This document shows positions 1-45,158 of a stretch of 53,141 bases of DNA, one piece after another (within the stretch, counting starts at the first letter, position 1; every line of letters begins with the position of its first letter). The notes under the pieces are model-generated. The model was not told where the DNA came from and searched no databases. It worked only from the letters and a program-made list of their open reading frames with translations. The DNA comes from a virus, in the IMG/VR virus record IMGVR_UViG_3300046692_000164, positions 1-53,141 of that record; one strand, given 5' to 3'. The position numbers and the translations under genes were made by a program.

Positions 1-127
1 CCCAATGCGGGCACGACAGCGTATTCGAATAGCCTGCTCGGACAGTCCAACTGATGGTCAAGATCGGTCTAGCCCGGAAGAAGGGTGAAAGAAGCCCAAG
101 GCCTGTGGCTATGGAAGGCGCGGTCGC
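1..127. repeat. Terminal direct repeat, left copy
   Basis: These 127 bases recur exactly at 53015-53141. The gene preceding the portal runs through the joint without interruption. This is what an assembler leaves at the ends of a circular or circularly permuted molecule, and 127 is a common maximum assembly k-mer. The unit genome is therefore 53,014 bp. A true short terminal repeat is less likely because the ends fall inside a coding region. Confidence 0.95.
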
Positions 128-617
128 TTTTGTTCCTCTCACGCGAGGAAAGATTGCCGTCATTGACGCCGAAGATGCTCCATTCATCTCTGAAATGACA
201 TGGAGCGCAATGACCACTGGTTACGCTCGGGCCGCCTATACGAATAGCACGGGGGCTACCGAGAGCATCTTCATGCACAGAAAGATCATTGGCGCTTTGC
301 CCCACCAGTTTGTTGACCACATTGATGGGGACAAGTTGAACAACCGCAAAAGCAATCTACGCCTTTGCACTCATGCTGAAAATATGGCCAACCGTTCAGC
401 CCAAAAGAACAATAGCGCTGGTTTTAAGGGTGTCTCCCTTTGCCGTAATACTGGGCGCTACCGTGCAATCATCACAGTTAACGGCAAGAAGCATCGGCTT
501 GGCCGCTTTGATAGTGCTGCTGAGGCAGCAATCGCCTATGATGCTGCTGCCATAAAGCTCCTTGGTGAATTTGCTTTCACAAACGATGCATCATTGGGGC
601 GGCGATTAAATGGATGA
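54..617 (+). CDS. HNH homing endonuclease with AP2 DNA-binding domain
   Basis: 187 aa. The HNH nuclease core VDHIDGDKLNNR lies at about residues 87-98, followed by NLRLC. An AP2-type DNA-binding domain fills residues 122-176 (GFKGVSL, then RYRAIITVNGKKHRLGRF, then AAIAYD). This HNH plus AP2 layout is typical of free-standing phage homing endonucleases that cut at a target and spread by repair. It sits between the terminase-proximal small gene and the portal gene; its start overlaps the upstream stop (TGATG) and its end overlaps the portal start by 8 bp. Homologues usually begin near Met20 (base 111), but no ribosome binding site is visible there, so the start is uncertain. It is probably a selfish insertion. 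Confidence 0.85.
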   Translation: MVKIGLARKKGERSPRPVAMEGAVAFVPLTRGKIAVIDAEDAPFISEMTWSAMTTGYARAAYTNSTGATESIFMHRKIIGALPHQFVDHIDGDKLNNRKSNLRLCTHAENMANRSAQKNNSAGFKGVSLCRNTGRYRAIITVNGKKHRLGRFDSAAEAAIAYDAAAIKLLGEFAFTNDASLGRRLNG

Positions 618-25360: not shown

Positions 25361-26530
25361 TCAGTCGGTCTTTTTGGCCCGGCTTTCCACTCTAGCCCCC
25401 GCAATGCGGCGGCTGCTCTCCAATCCATCGCCGCGGCTATACCGGCGAGTGGTCTTTGTCGTGGTATGGGTCGCAAGATCTCGGGCATCTTCAAGCGATC
25501 CCGTTGCCTCGACCGTCTCGGAAACTGCTCCGGCTCTCGAATCCATCGACCAAACGTTCGATGGGACGCCGGCGGCATCCCGCACCTTGCGGAATTTTTC
25601 CGTATAGCGATTCTCCCAATATGGTTTTCCATGGTCCTCGTCTAAAACGACAGGACCAATATCGGGGATTTTGAACGCCTTCAGCGCCTCCTCCACAAGA
25701 GGGTAGCTGTTTAGATCCCGCGCCACCGCAGCGCCGGTCTTGCTAGTCTTGAGCGACAAGATCATGCCTTTTGAGATCGACTTGGCCATCAAGCCGTTCC
25801 AGCGGAACTCTCCACCTTCAGGCACAGGCGCCCACTCTCCGATGATATCGATTCGGCGTAGAGCCGTTTCGAACTTCAGCGCCTCTACAAAGCCGATCGA
25901 TGGGCATTCCAATTCTGCGCTTTTCTTCACGATAGCCAGGCACTGATCATAGGTCATCGCGATTTCGCGCGGTGGCGGCTGTTCAAACCTCATGTCGGAT
26001 AGAATGGCGCGGGCCTGAGCGCAGCCGTGGAGGCGTTCTCCGGCCCCGTAGGAGATAATCACCCGGAGTAGCTTGATCGCGCCTGCTGCCCTCCTGTGTC
26101 CTTTCTTGCGCCAATCAGAATACCAACGCTTGAAGTCCGAGGCGACGAGCTTATCGACCCGGCGTTTCCCGACACTTTTATCTAGGACGCGCAAGCTCGG
26201 TTCATAGTCTCGGATTCGGGTGGAATGCTTGACGGTGTGAAGCGAGCTCGTCGTGTCTTGCCGATAGCAGTTGATCAGCGTGGATATCGTGCCGTCAAAT
26301 TCTGCAGGCGTGTTGAGGAGGCGGATTTCCTCTTTGAGCTGTTGCGTCAGGCGCTGGCACTCGGCCACCATCTCCTCGTCGGTTATCCCGTCGGGGAGGC
26401 GTATCGTGGAAAGGCTTGATGATGAGCCCTTCACCGCTCTATGCGGGTTCCAGTAGTGGACGGTCTCGCCATCCTTTTTCACCCGGTACTGGTATCCGGG
26501 TCTATCAGTCCTCAAAGTTCTCTTCTCCAT
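25361..26530 (-). CDS. int: Tyrosine integrase
   Basis: 389 aa from the ATG at 26530, which overlaps the upstream small gene by 26 bp; 31 further upstream codons are open but shadow that gene. The C-terminal catalytic domain shows the first Arg in ALRRIDIIGEW, a Lys in LKTSKTG, the second box as DSRAGAVSE (Asp in place of the usual His, followed by the conserved Arg), ATHTTTKTTRRY with the late His, and the nucleophilic Tyr in RRYSRG. The Asp variant is common in Rhizobiales integrases. It catalyses attP x attB recombination. It lies at the end of the leftward operon, next to attP. Confidence 0.92.
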   Translation of the reverse strand: MEKRTLRTDRPGYQYRVKKDGETVHYWNPHRAVKGSSSSLSTIRLPDGITDEEMVAECQRLTQQLKEEIRLLNTPAEFDGTISTLINCYRQDTTSSLHTVKHSTRIRDYEPSLRVLDKSVGKRRVDKLVASDFKRWYSDWRKKGHRRAAGAIKLLRVIISYGAGERLHGCAQARAILSDMRFEQPPPREIAMTYDQCLAIVKKSAELECPSIGFVEALKFETALRRIDIIGEWAPVPEGGEFRWNGLMAKSISKGMILSLKTSKTGAAVARDLNSYPLVEEALKAFKIPDIGPVVLDEDHGKPYWENRYTEKFRKVRDAAGVPSNVWSMDSRAGAVSETVEATGSLEDARDLATHTTTKTTRRYSRGDGLESSRRIAGARVESRAKKTD

Positions 26531-26720
26531 CTGGGGCGAGATTGCCCAGAGGAAGGATGCGAGGCCTTCCGGCGTTCGCGTCAATGTAGTCGACCTTGTG
26601 GATACCGGGGATAACGGTAACAACCAGAGAACGGATGTCGATTTGCACCGCAGCGCCTTGCCGATCGGCGGCGCGGATGATGCGTTCTATGTCGGCTTGG
26701 CGGAAAGCTACTCTGGTCAT
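26505..26720 (-). CDS. Small protein preceding integrase, candidate excision/DNA-binding factor
   Basis: 71 aa from the ATG at 26720 (GGAGG four to five bases upstream). It starts MTRVAFRQADIERIIRAADR and continues with VQIDIRSLVVTVIPG. Similar short proteins, with FRQADV-type starts, accompany integrases in Rhizobiales prophages. An excisionase-like role is possible from position only; no clear helix-turn-helix is visible. Coupled to both neighbours by overlap. Confidence 0.75.
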   Translation of the reverse strand: MTRVAFRQADIERIIRAADRQGAAVQIDIRSLVVTVIPGIHKVDYIDANAGRPRILPLGNLAPDGEENFED

Positions 26721-26941
26721 TCTGCCTCCTTGCCGATGTTGGCTATTTGTTCTTGCAAAGGATTGGGGGAGGATTCCACCTGACGCCACGTTGGCATGAC
26801 GGACTGCAAATGCGACTTATGAGGCTCTGGGCAGATCCACCAGCCAAGAGATGAAAGCCGCCTGAATAGCCACCAGCGCAGCGGCCTGAAAGCCATAATA
26901 TCAGCAACACCTTGGCAGAACGCGGCTTGCGATATTTTCAT
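26717..26941 (-). CDS. Small Trp-rich protein, unknown
   Basis: 74 aa, excellent ribosome binding site (GGAGGTGGTAAA) and ATGA overlap with the next gene. The region AFRPLRWWLFRRLSSLGWWICPEPH is basic and Trp-rich, suggesting membrane or nucleic-acid contact. No family recognised. Confidence 0.68.
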   Translation of the reverse strand: MKISQAAFCQGVADIMAFRPLRWWLFRRLSSLGWWICPEPHKSHLQSVMPTWRQVESSPNPLQEQIANIGKEAE

Positions 26942-27366
26942 TTTACCACCTCCAGCATCAACCGAGCCTTTTTGTATCGTTCCCGCCTGGATGGTCCATT
27001 CGGATCGGACGGTACGGCACGCTTCGGATCGAGATTGTCTGCGATGTCCGCAAGCTTCACGCGCCGTGCGATTGGATTCACGGACAGTCTGGCGATGAAG
27101 TCGAAATAGTCCTCACCGATGCGCCGGGTAAGAGCCTGGACGGCGTCCCTGACATCAACGGAGAATTTATGCGCCCGGAGATCGTCGGCCGACAGATCGG
27201 TGTCTTCGAGAACATCATGGAGAACCGCGACGATCTTATCTGTTCGATCTTCCATCGACATCATGACCCGGATCGGATGCAGGATATATGGGAAGCCACC
27301 CTTGTCGGTCTGGCCGGCGTGCCAGTAGGCGGCGAGTTGGATGGCTTTGGAGAGCATGTCAGCCAT
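26938..27366 (-). CDS. HD-domain hydrolase, Mesh1/RelA-SpoT hydrolase-like
   Basis: 142 aa from the ATG at 27366 (AGGAGGTGGGAA). The signature of the (p)ppGpp-hydrolase HD family is present: HAGQTDKGGFPYILHPIRV with metal ligand His30, AVLHDVLEDT with His50-Asp51 and catalytic-type Glu54-Asp55, and VKLADIADNL with Asp107 and Asn111. Mesh1-like enzymes of this compact size remove the 3' diphosphate of (p)ppGpp; some instead act on NADPH. No synthetase domain is attached. A phage copy could lower the stringent-response alarmone during infection. Metal and catalytic residues are all in place; substrate is inference. Confidence 0.87.
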   Translation of the reverse strand: MADMLSKAIQLAAYWHAGQTDKGGFPYILHPIRVMMSMEDRTDKIVAVLHDVLEDTDLSADDLRAHKFSVDVRDAVQALTRRIGEDYFDFIARLSVNPIARRVKLADIADNLDPKRAVPSDPNGPSRRERYKKARLMLEVVK

Positions 27367-27721
27367 TTCCCACCTCCTGCGCTTTGTCGTAGGCAGCGAT
27401 AGCTGATCTATTCTCCGACAGTACAGATGCGATGTACGCCAGCGTTCCATGCTCTCGGATTCGAGCGTACGCCTCGGCCACGCGCTCAGACTTACATTCG
27501 TCCGGCGCGTATATGTGAAGCCAGTCCTCGATCGCTAAATTGGACACTTCCAACGCCTTTGCCATCTCGTCGCACATGGCCTTGTCTGCATTAAGGTCGG
27601 ACAGGGCAACGAGAGGAATGTCACACTCTGTCCGGTTCTTCGGCGCAGCGTTGTCGAACTGAGCTGCGCTCCAAAGAGCATTTGGCCTCGCGCTACAGGC
27701 ATATGCCACGATCTTGCTCAT
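27359..27721 (-). CDS. Hypothetical protein of early left operon
   Basis: 120 aa, overlaps the upstream gene by 4 and the HD gene by 8 bases. Sequence is mixed alpha/beta with IVAYACSARPNALWSAAQFD at the start and a helical acidic second half. No recognised motif. Kept as real because of the continuous overlap chain. Confidence 0.68.
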   Translation of the reverse strand: MSKIVAYACSARPNALWSAAQFDNAAPKNRTECDIPLVALSDLNADKAMCDEMAKALEVSNLAIEDWLHIYAPDECKSERVAEAYARIREHGTLAYIASVLSENRSAIAAYDKAQEVGNG

Positions 27722-31620: not shown

Positions 31621-32335
31621 GGGAAGAGCCCTCCATTTTGGAGAGGATCGAGGCGTTGATGACCCGGCTCATCTCGACGTTGATGCCCTTGAATTCCCAA
31701 TATCCGGAAAACTCAATGCGACCCTCGTCGCCGATCTGGTCTGGCACGTCGATAAACTCAGCCCAAACGTGCTCGCCGATGGCAAACCCAAGACGTTCAG
31801 CCTCGACCAGAATAGCTTCTGCCTGATCATCGATATCGTCGCCGACAGGCTCAAAGGATCGTGGATAGCTTGGCAAGACGTGAGAGCCATGCTCATTGCG
31901 ACCGTCAAGAAACAGAACGCAGAAGGGTTGCTCAATCACCTTCACGGCCTCGGCAAGTTTGGCCTCAGCCTTCCGCGCCCTCTCTTCCTCACCCGCTGCA
32001 ATCGTGACTTGTAGATCACGGCTTGCCTTGATGTTCGCTATTTGCTGCTCAAGCTCTGCTATGCGGGAGTCGGCGGTGGATTGGAGTTCTGCATCCGCAA
32101 GAGCTGAGAGGATGACGCGCATGTTGACTGGAGAAGCGGCGGCGATATAGGCAAGATCGGCTTGCCAATTCGTTAGGCCAAAACGGCTCTCGTCAACCTG
32201 AGCGACGACGCGCACATTTGCCGTCCCCACACAACCTTTCACGTATGTCTCAGGCCGTTGGTATGCCCATGGTCCCGGCGTCACAGCCTCCATGGCCTTC
32301 GTGATCTGGTCGGATAGTTCCTTGGCGGTGGTCAT
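31607..32335 (-). CDS. Conserved phage protein of unknown function
   Basis: 242 aa from the ATG at 32335 (GAGAGGAACAGCC). The N-terminus resembles ead/Ea22-type phage proteins (AMEAVTPGPWAYQR, then DLAYIAAASPVNMRVILSAL). A coiled coil (about 85-125) is followed by an acidic domain (GDDIDDQAEAILVEAERLGF). Function unknown. Confidence 0.7.
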   Translation of the reverse strand: MTTAKELSDQITKAMEAVTPGPWAYQRPETYVKGCVGTANVRVVAQVDESRFGLTNWQADLAYIAAASPVNMRVILSALADAELQSTADSRIAELEQQIANIKASRDLQVTIAAGEEERARKAEAKLAEAVKVIEQPFCVLFLDGRNEHGSHVLPSYPRSFEPVGDDIDDQAEAILVEAERLGFAIGEHVWAEFIDVPDQIGDEGRIEFSGYWEFKGINVEMSRVINASILSKMEGSSHGKA

Positions 32336-32736
32336 GGCTGTTCCTCTCGGTAGAGCTGGCGCGGCGCCAAAGGCTGCTTCGTCTGGCGCTTCTCGGATTT
32401 CTCGGTTCGTGGGAAGCCGGCAGACTTGATCTTGCCGGTCGGGCGCGTGATGCCGAGGTGCTTCTTGCGGATAGCGGCGACCTTCGCCTTTTCGGCGACG
32501 TCCTGAGCTGTTTTGGCAATATGGCACTTGCGATGAGCAGGCTTGAGGTTGGATTCCTTGTTCTCGCCGCCGTTGATCAGCGCTACGACATGATCAAGAT
32601 CCCACTTCTTGCCGTCGATCTCGCAGCCGCAAAGATGGCAACGGTTGCCTTCTCGGGCCATGATGCGGTCGCGGACAGTGCCAGGCGCGCGGTGATCGTC
32701 GGACTTCCCGATCCATTCTGACACAGCGCGACTCAT
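32332..32736 (-). CDS. HNH nuclease-family protein
   Basis: 134 aa. HNH motif: NRCHLCGCEI, then WDLDHVVALINGGENKESNL and HRKCHIAKT. The basic C-terminus (RKKHLGITRPTGKIKSAGFP) could bind DNA. In contrast to the AP2-type HNH genes it is embedded by ATGA overlaps in the operon, so it is more likely a resident phage gene (recombination or host DNA attack) than a mobile insert. Confidence 0.82.
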   Translation of the reverse strand: MSRAVSEWIGKSDDHRAPGTVRDRIMAREGNRCHLCGCEIDGKKWDLDHVVALINGGENKESNLKPAHRKCHIAKTAQDVAEKAKVAAIRKKHLGITRPTGKIKSAGFPRTEKSEKRQTKQPLAPRQLYREEQP

Positions 32737-33086
32737 GACAGAAAATCCTCCAAATCAATCTGAGGAGCTTTTCGCCGCCGAGTGATCCGGGCATTCTTGG
32801 CATGGTGCGGCGCATCCCAACGCAAATGACAGCGCTGGCATAATGCGCGGCAACGCCCCGGATCGCCGTGACTCTCATCGTGATCCATGTGGGCGATGGT
32901 CAGGACGACCTTGCTGCCGGTCACAGGATGAGGCTTGCCGTTCTCGGCTCGGCAATCCGGATGCATCGGCGTGCCCTCGCAGCGATTGTCGGCGCGATCA
33001 AGGAGAGATGCACGGAAGGCCTTCCATTCCTTCGAATGGGTTCCGCCGCCGGGATAGAGCTTCATGCGTTCTTTGCTGATCGGCAT
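32733..33086 (-). CDS. Second HNH-like protein
   Basis: 117 aa from the ATG at 33086, which overlaps the upstream stop as TGATG. An HNH-like layout with ADNRCEGTPMHPDCRAENG, TIAHMDHDESHGDPGRC and LCQRCHLRWDAPHH is visible; the central motif has HMDHD in place of the usual DH. Two adjacent HNH genes in one operon are unusual and may work together or have duplicated. Confidence 0.78.
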   Translation of the reverse strand: MPISKERMKLYPGGGTHSKEWKAFRASLLDRADNRCEGTPMHPDCRAENGKPHPVTGSKVVLTIAHMDHDESHGDPGRCRALCQRCHLRWDAPHHAKNARITRRRKAPQIDLEDFLS

Positions 33087-33436
33087 CACGCGTCCTCCAG
33101 CATATATTTCTGGACGCGCTTGATGGTCTTGCCCTTCACCCGAATGACGCGGATTACTCGCGCCCGGTCGCAGGCAAAGGAAAACCCTTCCGACTTGGCG
33201 TCAGGGTCTTCCTGAAGCTCGCCGATCGGCTCAACCTCGTAGACCTTGCCATGACCAGACGGATGCATGCAGGCGTAGAGCAGGGCGCCTTCCTGTAAGG
33301 TGCAGACATAGACCTTCGAGCGGTCGCAAACTGCGTGGCCGCCAAAGCGGGCGAGTGATGGGACTTTTGTCTGGATGGGTGGCAACACCAAGTCGCCAAC
33401 CTTCAACTGTCCGTAGCCGCCGTGGAAATAGGTCAT
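33086..33436 (-). CDS. Arr-like (rifampin ADP-ribosyltransferase fold) protein
   Basis: 116 aa from the ATG at 33436 with GGAGGCGGGG upstream. The order TYFHGGYGQLKVGDLVLPP, VYVCTLQEGALLYA, VYEVEPIGELQEDPD and ARVIRVIRVKG matches the Arr family of rifampin ADP-ribosyltransferases, including the catalytic His-Tyr-Asp set (His5, Tyr43, Asp77 here). Arr enzymes transfer ADP-ribose from NAD+ to a small molecule; phage members could instead modify a host protein or nucleic acid. Length is slightly below that of Arr. The fold call is good; the target is unknown. Confidence 0.78.
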   Translation of the reverse strand: MTYFHGGYGQLKVGDLVLPPIQTKVPSLARFGGHAVCDRSKVYVCTLQEGALLYACMHPSGHGKVYEVEPIGELQEDPDAKSEGFSFACDRARVIRVIRVKGKTIKRVQKYMLEDA

Positions 33437-33612
33437 CCCCGCCTCCAATACCAAGGCAGGACCCGCTCAATCAGAGATTTGCGGCTAGCGCGCTTCTTCG
33501 CCTCGATCTCCCGATTAAGCCGCTCTATCACTTCGTTACGGCGATCGATGAAGGCCAGTGTCGTGGGGAGGGCTCTAGGATGCGCCCGGCAGTGGTCGTC
33601 GGCGGTCCTCAT
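33433..33612 (-). CDS. Very small basic protein
   Basis: 59 aa from the ATG at 33612, which overlaps the previous stop as ATGA; ribosome binding site GAGGGTTTCAGC. Strongly basic (IERLNREIEAKKRASRKSLI, ending PWYWRRG). Function unknown. Confidence 0.6.
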   Translation of the reverse strand: MRTADDHCRAHPRALPTTLAFIDRRNEVIERLNREIEAKKRASRKSLIERVLPWYWRRG

Positions 33613-34043
33613 GCTGAAACCCTCACTCTGGACAACCTGACAAACTCTCCGAACTTCAAACTCGGATAGATGTCGGCGACGTTGAGAAAACGCTGGTATC
33701 GAGCTTGGGCGCGAGATTTGGCCGGGATCGTATCGCTGAACCCGTTGAACTCGACGACGAATGAGCGCCACGGCTTGCCCATATGGACTGCCTGTTCTGC
33801 GAGGTGATCGCGAAGAGCGGCCCGGCCGGCATCAGTCACTGAGAAATATGCCATGCCGCGTTGCACGCCGGACAACTCCCAATTCTCGGAAGTGCCGAAT
33901 TCCTTGGCAAGCTGACTATCCACGTCGGTGGCAAAATAGTTGCGATAGGATTCCCGCATCGGGTCGACGGGCCGACCGAGAGCATGGTCGATGTGATCGA
34001 ATGCCTTATCCTTGAGGTAGCGGTTAACGCTCGGGTTTTTCAT
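33609..34043 (-). CDS. Hypothetical protein
   Basis: 144 aa, with an element GVQRGMAYFSVTDAGRAALRDHL that looks like the recognition helix and wing of a small DNA-binding or phage conserved protein, followed by a region with SFVVEFNGFSDTIPAKSRAQARYQ. No firm assignment. Confidence 0.68.
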   Translation of the reverse strand: MKNPSVNRYLKDKAFDHIDHALGRPVDPMRESYRNYFATDVDSQLAKEFGTSENWELSGVQRGMAYFSVTDAGRAALRDHLAEQAVHMGKPWRSFVVEFNGFSDTIPAKSRAQARYQRFLNVADIYPSLKFGEFVRLSRVRVSA

Positions 34044-34462
34044 GCCGCCACTCCCTTCACGTCTTCCGGAGTGATACCGAACTCAGATGCGATGAACGCA
34101 ATCGCCTCGCGCAGAAACTCGCCGAACGTCGGCTCATCCATGTTTTCGAAGGCGATCGACGAAGGCACTTTCACGATGTAGCCGCCCATGATGATGTCAT
34201 CGGTGAAACCGGTCCGAAGCTTCACCATCTGGTGGAGAGCCTTTTCGGTCGGCGCGCAGCCGGTTGCCTTCACGACTTCCCGTAGGAACGCCCAATAGAA
34301 GCGGAGACGGTCTGGAACGCGGCCGGTGCGTAGATCGACGCGGATCCTCTGGCCGTCGGGAAACTGGCGGATCATATCGCGATCCATTTCCATTTCGCCG
34401 ATAAGGCGGTCTCCCTGGCGAATGACATAAAGAGGTGCGTTTTCGGAGGGTTTTTTCGCCAT
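34040..34462 (-). CDS. DUF1367-like protein of recombination module
   Basis: 140 aa from the ATG at 34462 (AGGGTG eight bases upstream; a GTG at 34471 is an alternative). RLRFYWAFLREVVKATG, KALHQMVKLRTGF, VKVPSSIAFENMDEPTFGEF and LREAIAFIAS fit the DUF1367 family, which is commonly linked to ssDNA-annealing and replication genes in phages. Exact biochemical role unknown. Confidence 0.78.
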   Translation of the reverse strand: MAKKPSENAPLYVIRQGDRLIGEMEMDRDMIRQFPDGQRIRVDLRTGRVPDRLRFYWAFLREVVKATGCAPTEKALHQMVKLRTGFTDDIIMGGYIVKVPSSIAFENMDEPTFGEFLREAIAFIASEFGITPEDVKGVAA

Positions 34463-34467
34463 GTCGA

Positions 34468-35130
34468 TCACCCTACCATCAGCAAAGCTGCAGTCTCGTC
34501 GATCGGCTGCGGATCGTATCTGCGGCGAAGCTCGACGACCTTCCCGCGAACCTCGTTGAGGAAGGCGATCACCTCGCGCTCAAGCTCGGCAATCATGGCG
34601 TCGTCACGCTCAACCCGTCGGCAGAAGAACCTCATGGATTCCGGCATACGCGGGTCGTAGGAAACGAAATCGCACCACTTCCGGCCGGTACATCCCATTT
34701 GCCACATCATCTGAGTGATGTACTTGCCTGGCACCGCGCCGCCGATCAGCGTTTCAATGTGCGTGGCAGTGTTGGGGCACTTGATCTCAATCAGGCCCTC
34801 GTCGCCGACCAAGCCGTCAGGAGATGCGCCGGTCTCGCCGATTGTGGGGTGAGGAACAAAGCCAATCTCGACGACAGAGGCCACGCAGTTAAACTCATAT
34901 GCGGCGCGCGCTTCCGGCTCTGTCTCAGTGCCCAAAATCATTGCGGCATTGGTGAAGCCTTCGGTCGGAAGGCCCGTCAGGCGCTCGGTAATGAGTTGGG
35001 CTGCATAGTTGGCGCGGGTGGCGGCATAGCCGGTCTTAGTCTTGGCGATGACATCGGCTACGCGAGATGCCGTTACCCGTCCTAGCCGCACCTGATGCCA
35101 TGCCGCTGTTCCTTGGACTATTTCTTCCAT
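34468..35130 (-). CDS. YqaJ / lambda-type 5'-3' recombination exonuclease
   Basis: 220 aa from the ATG at 35130 (GGAGGCTTGATC). The restriction-endonuclease-fold core is clear: WHQVRLGRVTASRVADVIA at the start, then MILGTETEPEARAAYE, the metal ligands in GASPDGLVGDEGLIEIKCP (Asp, then Glu-x-Lys), and QMMWQMGCTGRKWCDFVSYD. It resects dsDNA ends to leave a 3' tail for the ERF annealing protein encoded upstream in the same operon. Together they form a phage recombination pair. Confidence 0.9.
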   Translation of the reverse strand: MEEIVQGTAAWHQVRLGRVTASRVADVIAKTKTGYAATRANYAAQLITERLTGLPTEGFTNAAMILGTETEPEARAAYEFNCVASVVEIGFVPHPTIGETGASPDGLVGDEGLIEIKCPNTATHIETLIGGAVPGKYITQMMWQMGCTGRKWCDFVSYDPRMPESMRFFCRRVERDDAMIAELEREVIAFLNEVRGKVVELRRRYDPQPIDETAALLMVG

Positions 35131-35132
35131 GA

Positions 35133-35714
35133 TCAAGCCTCCAAAGATTTCAGGTGGAAATAGACGCGCCGGCAGCCGACAACGTCGACCATCGCATCGT
35201 GCGCACCGTCGAGGTCTTCGTTGAAGAAATGGCGGATGCATTCTTCAAGCTTCGGAGCTTTCGGCTTATTGAAGCCGGCGGCGAGCATCCGTTCGGTCGG
35301 TGGAAGATTGATGATCGGCGTCGCAGCCTCCATCGTGCAGAACAATGGCTTGCGGAGCGGCATGACGCGTTCATAGTGCCGAGCGATTGCCGCCTCGACG
35401 ATGCCACGGTCGAATTTAATGTTGTGGGCGCAGATGAGATCGGCGCGCTGATAGAGGTGCGTGAAGGCAGAGAGCGAAAATTCTGCGCTGACACCGAACT
35501 GAGCTGCGCGCTCCGGCGTAATGCCATGAACGTTCGATGCCTGGACAGGAATGTCTACGCCGTTGTCGACAATGAAGGAAAACCCAGAGACAGGCTTGCC
35601 GTCATCCTCGCAAAGCTCGGCGGCAAGCTGCACTATATACGGCTGATCGGGATGATCGACCGGAATCCGATCCTGAAAGAAGCCAGTCGTTTCGGTGTCG
35701 AAGAACAGTATCAC
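35133..35714 (-). CDS. DnaQ-like 3'-5' exonuclease
   Basis: 193 aa. DEDD-type exonuclease motifs: FFDTETTG (Asp6, Glu8), NVHGITPERAAQFG, LICAHNIKFDRGIVEAA, and DGAHDAMVDVVGCRRVYF with the last His and Asp. It lies between the ERF and YqaJ-type genes, suggesting end processing during recombination or repair. Start overlaps the ERF gene by 4 bp. Confidence 0.88.
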   Translation of the reverse strand: MILFFDTETTGFFQDRIPVDHPDQPYIVQLAAELCEDDGKPVSGFSFIVDNGVDIPVQASNVHGITPERAAQFGVSAEFSLSAFTHLYQRADLICAHNIKFDRGIVEAAIARHYERVMPLRKPLFCTMEAATPIINLPPTERMLAAGFNKPKAPKLEECIRHFFNEDLDGAHDAMVDVVGCRRVYFHLKSLEA

Positions 35715-36526
35715 TTCTGTTCCTCCTTGCGCTGCGCGATAATAGCGATGCGACGACGCAGAGAGCCGATCACGTCGGAGTATGTTGACAACGGCAAATC
35801 AGAGACATCTTTGATTTTGTAGTGCTGGCAAAAGTATTCTTCCGTCGTTTCGGACTTGGCGATTAGATCCTTGATCACAGAAACCTGCGCGTCGGTGATC
35901 TTTTGAACTTCGTCGGGATCTTTGGGCGGGCGATTGCCGTCCCGATCATCACCGGTCGAGATATTGAAGAGCATGCAGAGTAGATAGCGTCTTCCATAGG
36001 TGGCCGTGCTGCCGAACGCCTGAGTGCCGGTCTTGTTGACGCCGCCCTTAGCCCCAGCTCCATCGACGGGGATTGCGCCAATGCCGTTACGGACATAGCC
36101 GCCAGAGTGGGAGATTTCCCACTTGATCAGCAGCTCGCCCTCGGCATTGTAGCCGTCGGGCTGAAACGAGACGCCGAAGCCATGGTCGTAGATGATCGGC
36201 ATGGCCTGATCTTCGATTGCGGCTAGATCGGCATAGTTTGAGTTGGTGTGGTTGTTACGCTTATTCTTCGTGACGACCGGCAATTCTTTTTGGCAAGCAG
36301 ACATGGCCGCGAAATAGGCGGTCTTGGCCTCATACTCGCGGTCCTCGCGAAGCTGGTCGCGCTGACGGTCTTCCATCTGATATTTCATCTCGAGCATCTT
36401 CTCGAGGCGTTCGATCGGGACGTTCGGGTCCATGGCGATGCGCTCGATCATGGCGACCATGGGTGCATCGTTGGCCGGGATGAGCTTCTGCTCTTGCTGC
36501 TCTTCGTGCTTTGCCAGCGCGGTCAT
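35711..36526 (-). CDS. ERF-family ssDNA-annealing protein
   Basis: 271 aa. The ERF core spans about residues 75-190: FAAMSACQKELPVVTKNKRN, YADLAAIEDQAMPIIYDHGF, and TQAFGSTATYGRRYLLCMLF with the conserved GSxxTYxRRY motif, followed by GDDRDGN. ERF proteins form rings on ssDNA and anneal complementary strands. The N-terminal 70 residues are helical and Met/Glu-rich, and the C-terminus looks like a small helical domain. The partner exonuclease is downstream. Confidence 0.92.
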   Translation of the reverse strand: MTALAKHEEQQEQKLIPANDAPMVAMIERIAMDPNVPIERLEKMLEMKYQMEDRQRDQLREDREYEAKTAYFAAMSACQKELPVVTKNKRNNHTNSNYADLAAIEDQAMPIIYDHGFGVSFQPDGYNAEGELLIKWEISHSGGYVRNGIGAIPVDGAGAKGGVNKTGTQAFGSTATYGRRYLLCMLFNISTGDDRDGNRPPKDPDEVQKITDAQVSVIKDLIAKSETTEEYFCQHYKIKDVSDLPLSTYSDVIGSLRRRIAIIAQRKEEQK

Positions 36527-38748: not shown

Positions 38749-39387
38749 TTATCTATTGAAGCGCAGAGGCGACCACTTCGCTATGATTATATCGCTAATC
38801 CTGATTTCCGTGTCGCTGTCGCCTGATATGACAATATCTTCCTGCCAGCGATCATCATAGCTCTCAGGCCTTAGGATGCCTTCGCCATCGATGTACAGAA
38901 AACGCTTGGCTGTGTACTCGTAACGGCCATGCTGCTCACGGACGACGACGACCAGGTCGCCGTTGCTTGGCACAAGACCAGCCTCAAGCACATTGACGCA
39001 ATGAATGAACTCTCCATCCGCGACAACTCGGTTCACAGAGTTTCCCGAGACCTTATAGAGGCGCTGGGCGCTCGCAGGATAGTCGGGGTGAGGAGCGACA
39101 GGCACGCCGAAGGGAACGAACTCCAGGCTCTCTTCTTTCCAAAGCCCTGCGGCAACTTCACCAACCACTCTCAAGCCTATGCTGTCATCGCCAATGCCGC
39201 TTTCGAGCCACTTAAGCGGCTTGTTCGTTGCCTTGGCGATAGCGATCAACGTCGTATGGCGCGGGCGGACATCTCCTGATTCCCATTGGGCGACAGCCCC
39301 GCGTGTCTTCCCCACAGCTTCCGCAAGTTCGTCCTGCGTCAATCCTGCGTCTTTGCGTGATTTGAATATGCGTGCGTTCAGTTCCAT
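38749..39387 (-). CDS. CI-like repressor: HTH plus S24 (LexA-type) peptidase
   Basis: 212 aa from Met at 39387 (in-frame ATG at 39441 gives 18 more residues and lies just downstream of operator O3; neither has a good ribosome binding site). Residues about 1-66 are an XRE helix-turn-helix (DAGLTQDELAEAVGKTRGAV, AQWESG). Then VVGEVAAGLW offers an Ala-Gly cleavage site, KVSGNSVNRVVADGEF holds the catalytic Ser, and YTAKRFLYIDG the Lys. It should keep lysogeny by binding O1-O3 and self-cleave when RecA is activated, so the phage is probably SOS-inducible. Confidence 0.9.
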   Translation of the reverse strand: MELNARIFKSRKDAGLTQDELAEAVGKTRGAVAQWESGDVRPRHTTLIAIAKATNKPLKWLESGIGDDSIGLRVVGEVAAGLWKEESLEFVPFGVPVAPHPDYPASAQRLYKVSGNSVNRVVADGEFIHCVNVLEAGLVPSNGDLVVVVREQHGRYEYTAKRFLYIDGEGILRPESYDDRWQEDIVISGDSDTEIRISDIIIAKWSPLRFNR

Positions 39388-39434
39388 GAAGCTATGATAT
39401 CGCGCCGCCTCGGCGCAATCTTCGATAGTCTCGC

Positions 39435-39463
39435 TTGACATGATGTTAGTTAAACTGTACATC
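39435..39463 (+). promoter_or_regulatory. Predicted rightward early promoter PR
   Basis: A consensus -35 TTGACA (39435-39440), a 17-nt spacer and -10 TACATC (39458-39463) point to the Cro-like gene at 39493. Operator O3 fills the spacer exactly as O1 does in PL, so repressor binding would exclude polymerase. Confidence 0.72.
39445..39461. promoter_or_regulatory. Repressor operator O3 (in PR)
   Basis: GTTAGTTAAACTGTACA, the inverted copy of O1 with one base change at the centre. It lies between the divergent repressor and Cro-like genes, overlapping PR; repressor bound here could also control its own transcription. Confidence 0.75.
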
Positions 39464-39492
39464 ATGCTAACCCTACAACGCGAGCATTTAAG

Positions 39493-39693
39493 ATGAAGAC
39501 TGGCATGGAGGCCGTAAAGGAAAGTGTCCCTTCCTTGGCCCATTTGGCAAGAGAGATCGGCGTGACGCGCGGCGCAGTGGCGCAGTGGGACCGGGTTCCA
39601 GCTGAGCGGATTGCCGATGTCGCCCGCGTCACAAAGCTTTCCTTTGATATCATCCGCCCTGACCTTTTTGCAGTCACACAGGGTGCAGCATGA
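39493..39693 (+). CDS. YdaS/Cro-like DNA-binding protein
   Basis: 66 aa (a second ATG is at 39505). A single helix-turn-helix SLAHLAREIGVTRGAVAQWD and the ending VPAERIADVARVTKLSFDIIRPDLF follow the YdaS/Cro family. It is divergent from the repressor and first in the rightward operon, the position of Cro. Expected to bind the same operators and tip the switch to lysis. Its stop overlaps the next start as ATGA. Confidence 0.88.
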   Translation: MKTGMEAVKESVPSLAHLAREIGVTRGAVAQWDRVPAERIADVARVTKLSFDIIRPDLFAVTQGAA

Positions 39694-41963: not shown

Positions 41964-42497
41964 ATGACCGTAGACCGTCTAAGCGAAATCGATTGGCCTT
42001 TGCATCTGACTTATGAGCATACCACAGGCGTATTCTTGTGGTTGCAAAGAGAAGTCAGATCTAAGCACGACAAAGCCTTCAATTCGAGATTTTCTGGTTG
42101 TGAGGCGGGGTCTATATCGCGAGATGGTTACAGGGTAATTCGGGTTAAAGGGCAGTCTTATCTGTCACACCGTATTGCTTGGATTATGCATTTTGGTGTC
42201 GTTCCGTCGCATGGAATTGATCACATTAATGGTAATCGCTCGGACAATAGGATTTTAAATCTTAGGGACGTTCCCCAGTCCTTAAACCTCAAGAATCTTC
42301 GCATATCAGAGAAAAACAAAAGCGGGCATCCGGGTGTTTATTTCAGCCGACGCGACAATGTCTGGCACGCGCAAATCTACGAGCGTGGGAAGCCGATCTA
42401 TCTCGGACACTCAAAAGACTTTGATGCTGCCGTGACGCTTCGGAAGAATGCCGAGGCAGATCTTGGATATCACCCGAACCATGGACGGCCCGCATGA
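41964..42497 (+). CDS. HNH homing endonuclease with AP2-like C-terminus
   Basis: 177 aa. HNH core IDHINGNRSDNRILNLRDV at residues 85-103, preceded by YLSHRIAWIMHFG. Residues 121-165 (GHPGVYFSRRDNVWHAQIYE, then IYLGHSKDFDAA) form an AP2-like DNA-binding unit. The gene looks distinctly lower in GC than its neighbours, which fits recent arrival of a mobile homing gene. Same general architecture as the gene at 54-617 but clearly divergent. Confidence 0.85.
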   Translation: MTVDRLSEIDWPLHLTYEHTTGVFLWLQREVRSKHDKAFNSRFSGCEAGSISRDGYRVIRVKGQSYLSHRIAWIMHFGVVPSHGIDHINGNRSDNRILNLRDVPQSLNLKNLRISEKNKSGHPGVYFSRRDNVWHAQIYERGKPIYLGHSKDFDAAVTLRKNAEADLGYHPNHGRPA

Positions 42498-44353: not shown

Positions 44354-44724
44354 GCGAAGTCATGACCCGCGAGGAGTATCAGGCCGCCATCGCCAAGCCG
44401 AAGCGCGGGAATAAATTCGGCGCCAAGCGGACGGTAGTTGACGGCATCACCTTCGACAGCAAGCGCGAGGCGGAAGTCTATTCCGACCTGAAGCTGCTTG
44501 AGCGCGCCGGCAGGATATCCGGCTTCGAGCGCCAGCGTAAATTCAACCTGATCGTCAATGGAGAAATCATCGGCACATACCGGGCCGACTTCGCCTTCAT
44601 CGACCACGACCAAGATGGAAGGTTTAGGGCGATCGATGTGAAGGGGTTTGATACTCCATTAAGCGCTTGGAAACGGAAACATGTGGCCGCTTTGTATGGG
44701 ATTGAAGTCGAGGTGGTTCGATGA
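44350..44724 (+). CDS. DUF1064 endonuclease-like protein
   Basis: 124 aa; ATGA start overlap (second Met at 44362). The family core is clear: NKFGAKRTVVDGITFDSKREAE, YSDLKLLERAGRISGFERQ and YRADFAFID, then AIDVKGFDTPLSAWKRKHV. Glu, Asp and the Asp-x-Lys motif correspond to the PD-(D/E)XK site. DUF1064 proteins are thought to act like Holliday-junction or repair nucleases in phages. Confidence 0.87.
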   Translation: MSEVMTREEYQAAIAKPKRGNKFGAKRTVVDGITFDSKREAEVYSDLKLLERAGRISGFERQRKFNLIVNGEIIGTYRADFAFIDHDQDGRFRAIDVKGFDTPLSAWKRKHVAALYGIEVEVVR

Positions 44725-45158
44725 CCGATGCACCTTGCATGAAAATCAACGTGAATTCTTTCCTGGCTGACACCCTGCATCTCTCAACTAAAGAGGTCGG
44801 TGAATATGCGCTGATGTTAATTTCTGGCTGGCAGCGGCCAACGCGGAACATGCCGACAATCAAGCAGCTCAGGTCTCTCAATCTAACGAAAATCCAGTGT
44901 AGCCGCCACATTCGATACGACCTTCACCCAAGCAATTGGCCTGAAGGTGATTGGGCATCAGTTCGCGAGGCAGTTTTCCTTCGCGATGGCATGGTCTGCG
45001 CGTACTGCCGCACGACCGAAGGCCCATTCGATGTCGATCACATTTTCCCGAAATCTCGTGGTGGCCGAAATACCAGTTCCAATCTCACTATCGCGTGCGC
45101 CTCCTGTAACCGCAGCAAGGGCGCCAGAACACCGGAAGAATGGATGTCTAGCCGATGA
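44721..45158 (+). CDS. DUF1376-like fragment fused to HNH nuclease
   Basis: 145 aa. Residues about 6-40 (MKINVNSFLADTLHLSTKEV, then GEYALMLISGWQRP) resemble the beginning of DUF1376 replication proteins. After a divergent bridge, residues 75-143 form an HNH nuclease: RDGMVCAYCRTTEGPFDVDH, FPKSRGGRNTSSNL and CASCNRSKG. It reads as an HNH domain that replaced the rest of a replication gene. Overlaps both neighbours by 4 bp and is still in frame, so it is probably expressed. Confidence 0.75.
   Translation: MTDAPCMKINVNSFLADTLHLSTKEVGEYALMLISGWQRPTRNMPTIKQLRSLNLTKIQCSRHIRYDLHPSNWPEGDWASVREAVFLRDGMVCAYCRTTEGPFDVDHIFPKSRGGRNTSSNLTIACASCNRSKGARTPEEWMSSR

What the first reader, a model, noticed from the sequence alone, without database searches (positions are those of the whole stretch)
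33086..33436. Phage-encoded Arr-like ADP-ribosyltransferase with full His-Tyr-Asp set
A 116-aa protein in the early left operon keeps the three catalytic residues of rifampin ADP-ribosyltransferases. Early phage ADP-ribosyltransferases usually modify host RNA polymerase or other host factors, but this small-molecule type is not classically a phage weapon. It could be a takeover enzyme, an anti-defence factor (NAD+ or nucleotide signal chemistry) or give lysogens antibiotic tolerance.
Basis: partly seen in the sequence, partly recalled or inferred. Interest (0 to 1): 0.75.

Follow-up and report, generated by a model that had tools for sequence, protein, structure and literature searches.

The report
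Rhizobial phage Arr-like ADP-ribosyltransferase gene
A temperate phage of root-nodule-type bacteria carries a small, intact enzyme gene of the same fold and active site as the rifampin-inactivating enzyme Arr, but without Arr's drug-binding parts, so it probably tags some other target in the infected cell; relatives in phages were already reported in 2022.

Summary
Window 33086-33436 (minus strand) is a real 116-aa gene, 4-bp-overlapped with its neighbours, under purifying selection (dN/dS about 0.03-0.25), and matching Pfam Arr-ms (1.2e-7, above its cut-off). AlphaFold gives an ART fold (pLDDT 86, pTM 0.81); the only significant PDB matches are the three Arr entries (2hw2, E 3e-6, TM 0.64). 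H5, Y43 and D77 align with Arr H19, Y49 and D84 and are kept in 65, 64 and 62 of 65 relatives.

It is not a rifampin Arr by the tests available: 27.9 bits against NCBIfam's cut-off of 130. It belongs to a separate, mostly phage-borne clade (PHROG 17296, 'HGG' not 'HGT') lacking Arr's rifampin-binding motifs. No ADP-ribosyl hydrolase or fixed partner accompanies it. It is an accessory gene in the NinB-HNH interval of a temperate phage's leftward operon.

Iyer et al. 2022 already reported this family in related phage PBC5 (62% identical). So: a new member of a known kind. Added here: evidence against rifamycin as substrate, and four distant viruses with the domain inserted inside a DUF5131 protein. 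The true substrate is unknown; host- or defence-directed ADP-ribosylation is the best guess.

The parts
33086..33436 (-). Arr-like ADP-ribosyltransferase (ART), 116 aa; PHROG 17296; catalytic-set residues H5, Y43, D77
33433..33612 (-). small 59-aa ORF overlapping the ART start by 4 bp; no family; similar small ORF beside the ART in L021 and L022
33609..34043 (-). 144-aa upstream gene, PHROG 13561, unknown function
34040..34471 (-). NinB/Orf-type recombination mediator (PHROG 319)
34468..35241 (-). RecE/YqaJ-type exonuclease (PHROG 149)
35133..35714 (-). DnaQ-like exonuclease (PHROG 192)
35711..36526 (-). Erf-like single-strand annealing protein (PHROG 155)
32733..33089 (-). HNH endonuclease (PHROG 1571), overlapping the ART stop by 4 bp
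32332..32736 (-). HNH endonuclease (PF01844, PHROG 333)
38749..39543 (-). CI-type repressor (HTH_3 plus PHROG 4), start of the leftward region
25361..26623 (-). divergent tyrosine integrase-like ORF (PHROG 1, E 1.2e-5), far end of the leftward region; Pfam integrase not reached

Best explanation
The gene makes an active-looking NAD+-dependent mono-ADP-ribosyltransferase of the Arr-like (H-Y-D) type (fold and residues shown by prediction and alignment; activity inferred). It belongs to a mobile, phage-borne clade distinct from rifampin-resistance Arr, so its acceptor is most likely not a rifamycin. It sits as an interchangeable accessory gene in the recombination/nin-type part of a temperate phage's leftward operon and has no antitoxin or ADP-ribosyl hydrolase beside it. 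The most likely use is to ADP-ribosylate a host component or a host defence molecule during infection or after induction. The target and the timing are inferred.
For: Arr-ms profile hit and triad; ART fold with Arr as the only significant PDB matches. Purifying selection. Rifampin-binding motifs absent: SN[YF] 1/65 vs 14/14 Arr, DPN[VL]TDKK 0/65 vs 14/14, PGNPT 0/65 vs 14/14, HGT 2/65 vs 14/14. Separate from Arr with 100/100 support and a long branch of 2.26. Rare and mobile: 3 of 151 Rhizobiaceae genomes, 5 of 57 loci with a related Erf gene, always downstream of it in the NinB-HNH region. Neighbours vary; ADP-ribosylglycohydrolase in 1 of 33 and Macro in 0 of 33 ART-bearing virus records. 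Precedent for stand-alone small phage ARTs as counter-defence: AcrIF11 (PMC12421852).
Against: No target, activity or expression data. Being an accessory gene fits several other roles. AcrIF11 is a precedent for the logic only: no AcrIF11 entry was among the significant sequence or fold matches. Small-molecule modification of a non-rifamycin compound is not excluded.
Confidence: 0.5

Rival explanations
1. It is a rifamycin (or related antibiotic) ADP-ribosyltransferase that protects lysogens, as suggested for PBC5 by Iyer et al. 2022.
For: Pfam Arr-ms above cut-off; closest solved structures are rifampin-bound Arr; published suggestion; most ART-bearing records carry an integrase, i.e. are temperate (20 of 33).
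Against: NCBIfam rifampin_ARR 27.9 bits vs cut-off 130, while a genuine Arr scores 169. The rifampin loop DPNVTDKK-PGNPT, the SN[YF] motif and the C-terminal strand that supplies A139/I141 in Arr-ms are missing (residue roles). A Streptomyces genome carries both a true Arr and a member of this clade.
Confidence: 0.12
2. It works with DUF5131 (Gp37/Gp68, putative metal-cluster enzyme) and the PHROG 874 protein in a modification pathway acting on nucleotides or nucleic acid.
For: In four viral contigs a family member is inserted inside a full-length DUF5131 protein. In L065 and L066 a PHROG 874 gene lies directly upstream of the fusion, and in many Sinorhizobium phages directly upstream of the ART. 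PHROG 874 or DUF5131 within 3 kb upstream in 15 of 27 ART-bearing locus groups vs 8 of 41 control loci, Fisher p 0.004.
Against: The window and its nearest relatives (L021-L024) have neither gene near the ART. The test was post hoc, not corrected for relatedness, and the controls were not matched by host. Four fusions may be one event. The fold of the fusion could not be predicted (pLDDT 36).
Confidence: 0.17
3. It is a toxin or superinfection-exclusion NADase/ART that arrests the cell.
For: Some small ARTs in phages are toxin-antitoxin or other toxin components (PMC9503650).
Against: No conserved antitoxin or immunity gene beside it and no Macro or hydrolase partner. That survey found ARTs with NADase activity under-represented in viruses.
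Confidence: 0.13
4. It is a catalytically dead ART remnant kept for a binding role.
For: Three actinobacterial relatives lose the Asp; Arr in M. smegmatis has non-catalytic roles (PMC3138739).
Against: Triad intact in the window and in all alphaproteobacterial-phage members; strong purifying selection.
Confidence: 0.05

Closest known systems
PBC5 orf74 (Sinorhizobium phage PBC5), phage named as a bearer of the rifampin-ART family by Iyer et al. 2022 (PMC9503650)
   Same: 62% identical over 98% of the protein, same triad, similar phage type and genome region
   Different: ordinary sequence divergence; flanking genes differ
Arr / Arr-ms rifampin ADP-ribosyltransferase (PF12120, 2hw2)
   Same: fold (TM 0.64), H-Y-D residues, [VIL]-Y-x-V-x-P strand
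   Different: HGG instead of HGT, no SN[YF], no DPN[VL]TDKK-PGNPT loop, no C-terminal strand; separate clade
Streptomyces phage TurkishDelight gp70, annotated ADP-ribosyltransferase
   Same: same 'HGG' family, 42% identical over 78%
   Different: actinobacterial branch of the family
AcrIF11, phage and plasmid ART that blocks type I-F CRISPR (PMC12421852)
   Same: small stand-alone ART on mobile elements
   Different: no AcrIF11 among significant sequence or fold matches; no evidence of a CRISPR target here

Membership tests
ADP-ribosyltransferase superfamily, Arr-like (H-Y-[D/E]) clade | ART fold | tested here: met
   AlphaFold model pLDDT 86, pTM 0.81; only significant PDB matches are Arr
ADP-ribosyltransferase superfamily, Arr-like (H-Y-[D/E]) clade | His, Tyr and acidic residue at the NAD+ site | tested here: met
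   H5, Y43, D77; kept in 65, 64 and 62 of 65 relatives
ADP-ribosyltransferase superfamily, Arr-like (H-Y-[D/E]) clade | NAD+-dependent ADP-ribose transfer | not testable with these tools
   needs purified protein
Rifampin ADP-ribosyltransferase (Arr, NF033144) | score above the curated equivalog cut-off | tested here: not met
   27.9 bits vs 130; genuine Arr in the same genome as L014 scores 169 bits
Rifampin ADP-ribosyltransferase (Arr, NF033144) | HGT and SN[YF] motifs | tested here: not met
   HGG; SN[YF] absent; Arr 14/14 for both (motifs from PMC6092378)
Rifampin ADP-ribosyltransferase (Arr, NF033144) | rifampin-binding loop DPN[VL]TDKK..PGNPT | tested here: not met
   0/65 in the family, 14/14 in Arr
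Rifampin ADP-ribosyltransferase (Arr, NF033144) | C-terminal helix motif M[RK][DE]xL and following strand | tested here: inconclusive
   protein ends after a helix at residue 115, no following strand; the loosened helix pattern does not separate the groups (25/65 vs 8/14)
Pfam PF12120 Arr-ms | score above gathering cut-off | tested here: met
   32.3 vs 25 bits
PHROG 17296 | profile match over full length | tested here: met
   4.5e-32, residues 3-113
ART toxin-antitoxin pair | conserved adjacent antitoxin or ADP-ribose-removing gene | tested here: not met
   neighbours vary; ARG 1/33, Macro 0/33
AcrIF11 | sequence or fold match to AcrIF11 | tested here: not met
   not among significant PDB sequence or fold hits

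The most novel reading that the evidence does not exclude
The phage 'HGG' ARTs are not antibiotic-resistance enzymes but one step of an undescribed phage modification pathway together with DUF5131 (putative metal-cluster enzyme) and PHROG 874, acting on nucleotides, nucleic acid or a host factor. In some viruses the ART is built into DUF5131.
Probability: 0.15. Interest if true: 0.75.

Novelty: new member of a known kind. Interest (0 to 1): 0.38.

Why it matters
Phage Arr-like ARTs have been interpreted in the literature as probable rifamycin-resistance enzymes and would be flagged as such by a Pfam scan. The missing drug-binding parts argue that this label is wrong for the whole phage clade, which makes the substrate a well-posed open question. 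If the target is a host or defence molecule, it adds a compact enzyme (116 aa) to the set of phage counter-measures; the DUF5131 insertions give a concrete lead to what it works with.

Tried and rejected
Rifampin Arr membership: rejected. Toxin-antitoxin pair: no conserved partner; no co-encoded ADP-ribosylglycohydrolase (1/33, and that one in a DUF5131-fusion virus) or Macro domain (0/33). AcrIF11 relative: not found. ART as a core gene of this phage group: rejected, 5 of 57 Erf loci. Fold of the ART-in-DUF5131 fusion: failed, pLDDT 36 with 4 sequences. Literature on DUF5131/Gp37 function: nothing useful held. Pfam on ten neighbouring proteins gave only DUF968 and an RNase T exonuclease. NADAR partners were not searched.

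Full report
OBSERVATION. The ORF at 33086-33436 reads on the minus strand as a 116-aa protein beginning MTYFHGGYGQLKVGD. It is one link in a chain of genes that overlap by 4 bp (34043-33609, 33612-33433, 33436-33086, 33089-32733, 32736-32332). Against close relatives it shows far fewer non-synonymous than synonymous changes (dN/dS about 0.03 for L021 and L022, 0.11 for L023, 0.16-0.25 for more distant relatives). It is a real gene.

IDENTITY. Pfam Arr-ms matches at 1.2e-7, 32.3 bits over a cut-off of 25; PHROG 17296, unknown function, at 4.5e-32. The family profile aligns with a genuine Streptomyces Arr at 95% probability. The AlphaFold model from 46 sequences has pLDDT 86 and pTM 0.81. Its only PDB matches with E <= 0.001 are 2hw2, 9iaf and 9iba, all Arr. 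Viral fold matches include another predicted 'Ms Rifampin ADP-ribosyl transferase' and several unnamed small phage proteins. H5, Y43 and D77 align with Arr-ms H19, Y49 and D84, the catalytic set according to PMC6092378. Over 65 family sequences H is kept in 65, Y in 64 and D in 62; the three without D are L018, L020 and L077, a Streptomyces-type branch.

NOT A RIFAMPIN ARR. NCBIfam's rifampin_ARR model gives 27.9 bits against a cut-off of 130, whereas a true Streptomyces Arr gives 169. PMC6092378 names the parts that bind rifampin. I compared 14 genuine Arr proteins with the phage family. SN[YF] is in 14/14 Arr and 1/65 phage; DPN[VL]TDKK in 14/14 and 0/65; PGNPT in 14/14 and 0/65; HGT in 14/14 and 2/65, replaced by HGG in 63/65. 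The window protein ends after the last helix, so the Arr strand carrying A139 and I141 is missing. The loosened helix motif was not discriminating. A tree puts Arr on one side of a fully supported long branch (100/100, length 2.26) and all alphaproteobacterial-phage members together (100/100). One Streptomyces genome has both a true Arr and a member of this clade. The Arr label therefore fits the fold and chemistry, not the substrate.

SETTING. The window is an IMG/VR virus record. A CI-type repressor (38749-39543) and a divergent integrase-like ORF (25361-26623, below Pfam detection) lie at the two ends of a leftward gene block: PHROG 1376, Erf, DnaQ-like exonuclease, RecE-type exonuclease, NinB, PHROG 13561, a 59-aa ORF, the ART, two HNH nucleases. 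20 of 33 ART-bearing records have an integrase match, and PBC5 is temperate (PMC12429752). The ART is accessory: 3 of 151 Rhizobiaceae genomes, 5 of 57 viral loci with a related Erf gene, each time downstream of the exonuclease/NinB genes and, where the locus extends far enough, mostly followed by an HNH gene. Immediate neighbours vary. An ADP-ribosylglycohydrolase occurs in 1 of 33 ART-bearing records and a Macro domain in none, which argues against a toxin-antitoxin reading.

A SIDE LEAD. In L065, L066, L072 and L073 a family member is inserted inside a full-length DUF5131 (Gp37/Gp68) protein; in L066 it lies between '..EPLLGPVDLRPWL' and 'IDWVIVGGETGP..'. Both parts of L066 score independently (PHROG 2045 at 7.7e-107 and PHROG 17296 at 1.7e-22). 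DUF5131 carries a C-x6-C-x2-C-Y cysteine motif that suggests a metal-cluster enzyme (my inference). Upstream of the fusion in L065 and L066, and directly upstream of the ART in many Sinorhizobium phages, is PHROG 874. PHROG 874 or DUF5131 lies within 3 kb upstream in 15 of 27 ART-bearing locus groups against 8 of 41 Erf loci without ART (Fisher p 0.004). This test was post hoc, not corrected for relatedness, and the window itself has neither gene nearby, so it is a lead rather than a result. The fusion could not be folded.

HOW IT MOST LIKELY WORKS. Shown by computation: ART fold, intact triad, selection, mobility, missing rifampin site. Inferred: it uses NAD+ to ADP-ribosylate a target other than rifamycin, during infection or induction, to the benefit of the phage. 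A host component or defence molecule is the most likely target (about 0.5). A pathway with DUF5131/PHROG 874 (0.17), a toxin or NADase (0.13), rifamycin resistance (0.12) and a dead remnant (0.05) are the rivals.

KNOWN OR NEW. Iyer et al. 2022 (PMC9503650, section 3.7.4) reported rifampin-ART-family proteins in phage PBC5 and in Microbacterium and Gordonia phages. They proposed antibiotic resistance or action on immunity compounds. The only PBC5 match to the window protein is orf74, 62% identical. The window gene is thus a new member of a described kind.

Noticed in passing
L065 7407-8639, L066 1868-3067, L072 4810-5985, L073 7440-8606: ART domain inserted inside a full-length DUF5131 (Gp37/Gp68) protein in four viral contigs; possible functional partnership.
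   Followed up: partly
L066 6259-7233: ADP-ribosylglycohydrolase (PF03747, 3.1e-74) 3.2 kb downstream of the ART-DUF5131 fusion, the only such co-occurrence in 33 records.
   Followed up: partly
L025, L050, L052 and others, directly upstream of the ART; L066 1515-1871: PHROG 874 protein of unknown function recurrently overlaps the start of the ART or of the ART-DUF5131 fusion by 4 bp.
   Followed up: partly
L008 3866-4846 (Mycobacteroides abscessus plasmid 2): Related ART domain fused to a C-terminal region, next to PPE and type VII secretion-target genes and a VapC pair.
   Followed up: no
L018, L020, L077: Streptomyces-type branch of the family that has lost the catalytic Asp (Ser in its place).
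   Followed up: no
window 26938-27450 (-): Metal-dependent phosphohydrolase (PHROG 990, 2.4e-47), possibly a nucleotide or alarmone hydrolase, in the same leftward block.
   Followed up: no
window 41964-42497 (+) and 54-617 (+): Two HNH endonucleases of the same PHROG 99 family in one phage, plus further HNH genes at 32332-32736, 32733-33089 and 44721-45158: unusually many.
   Followed up: no
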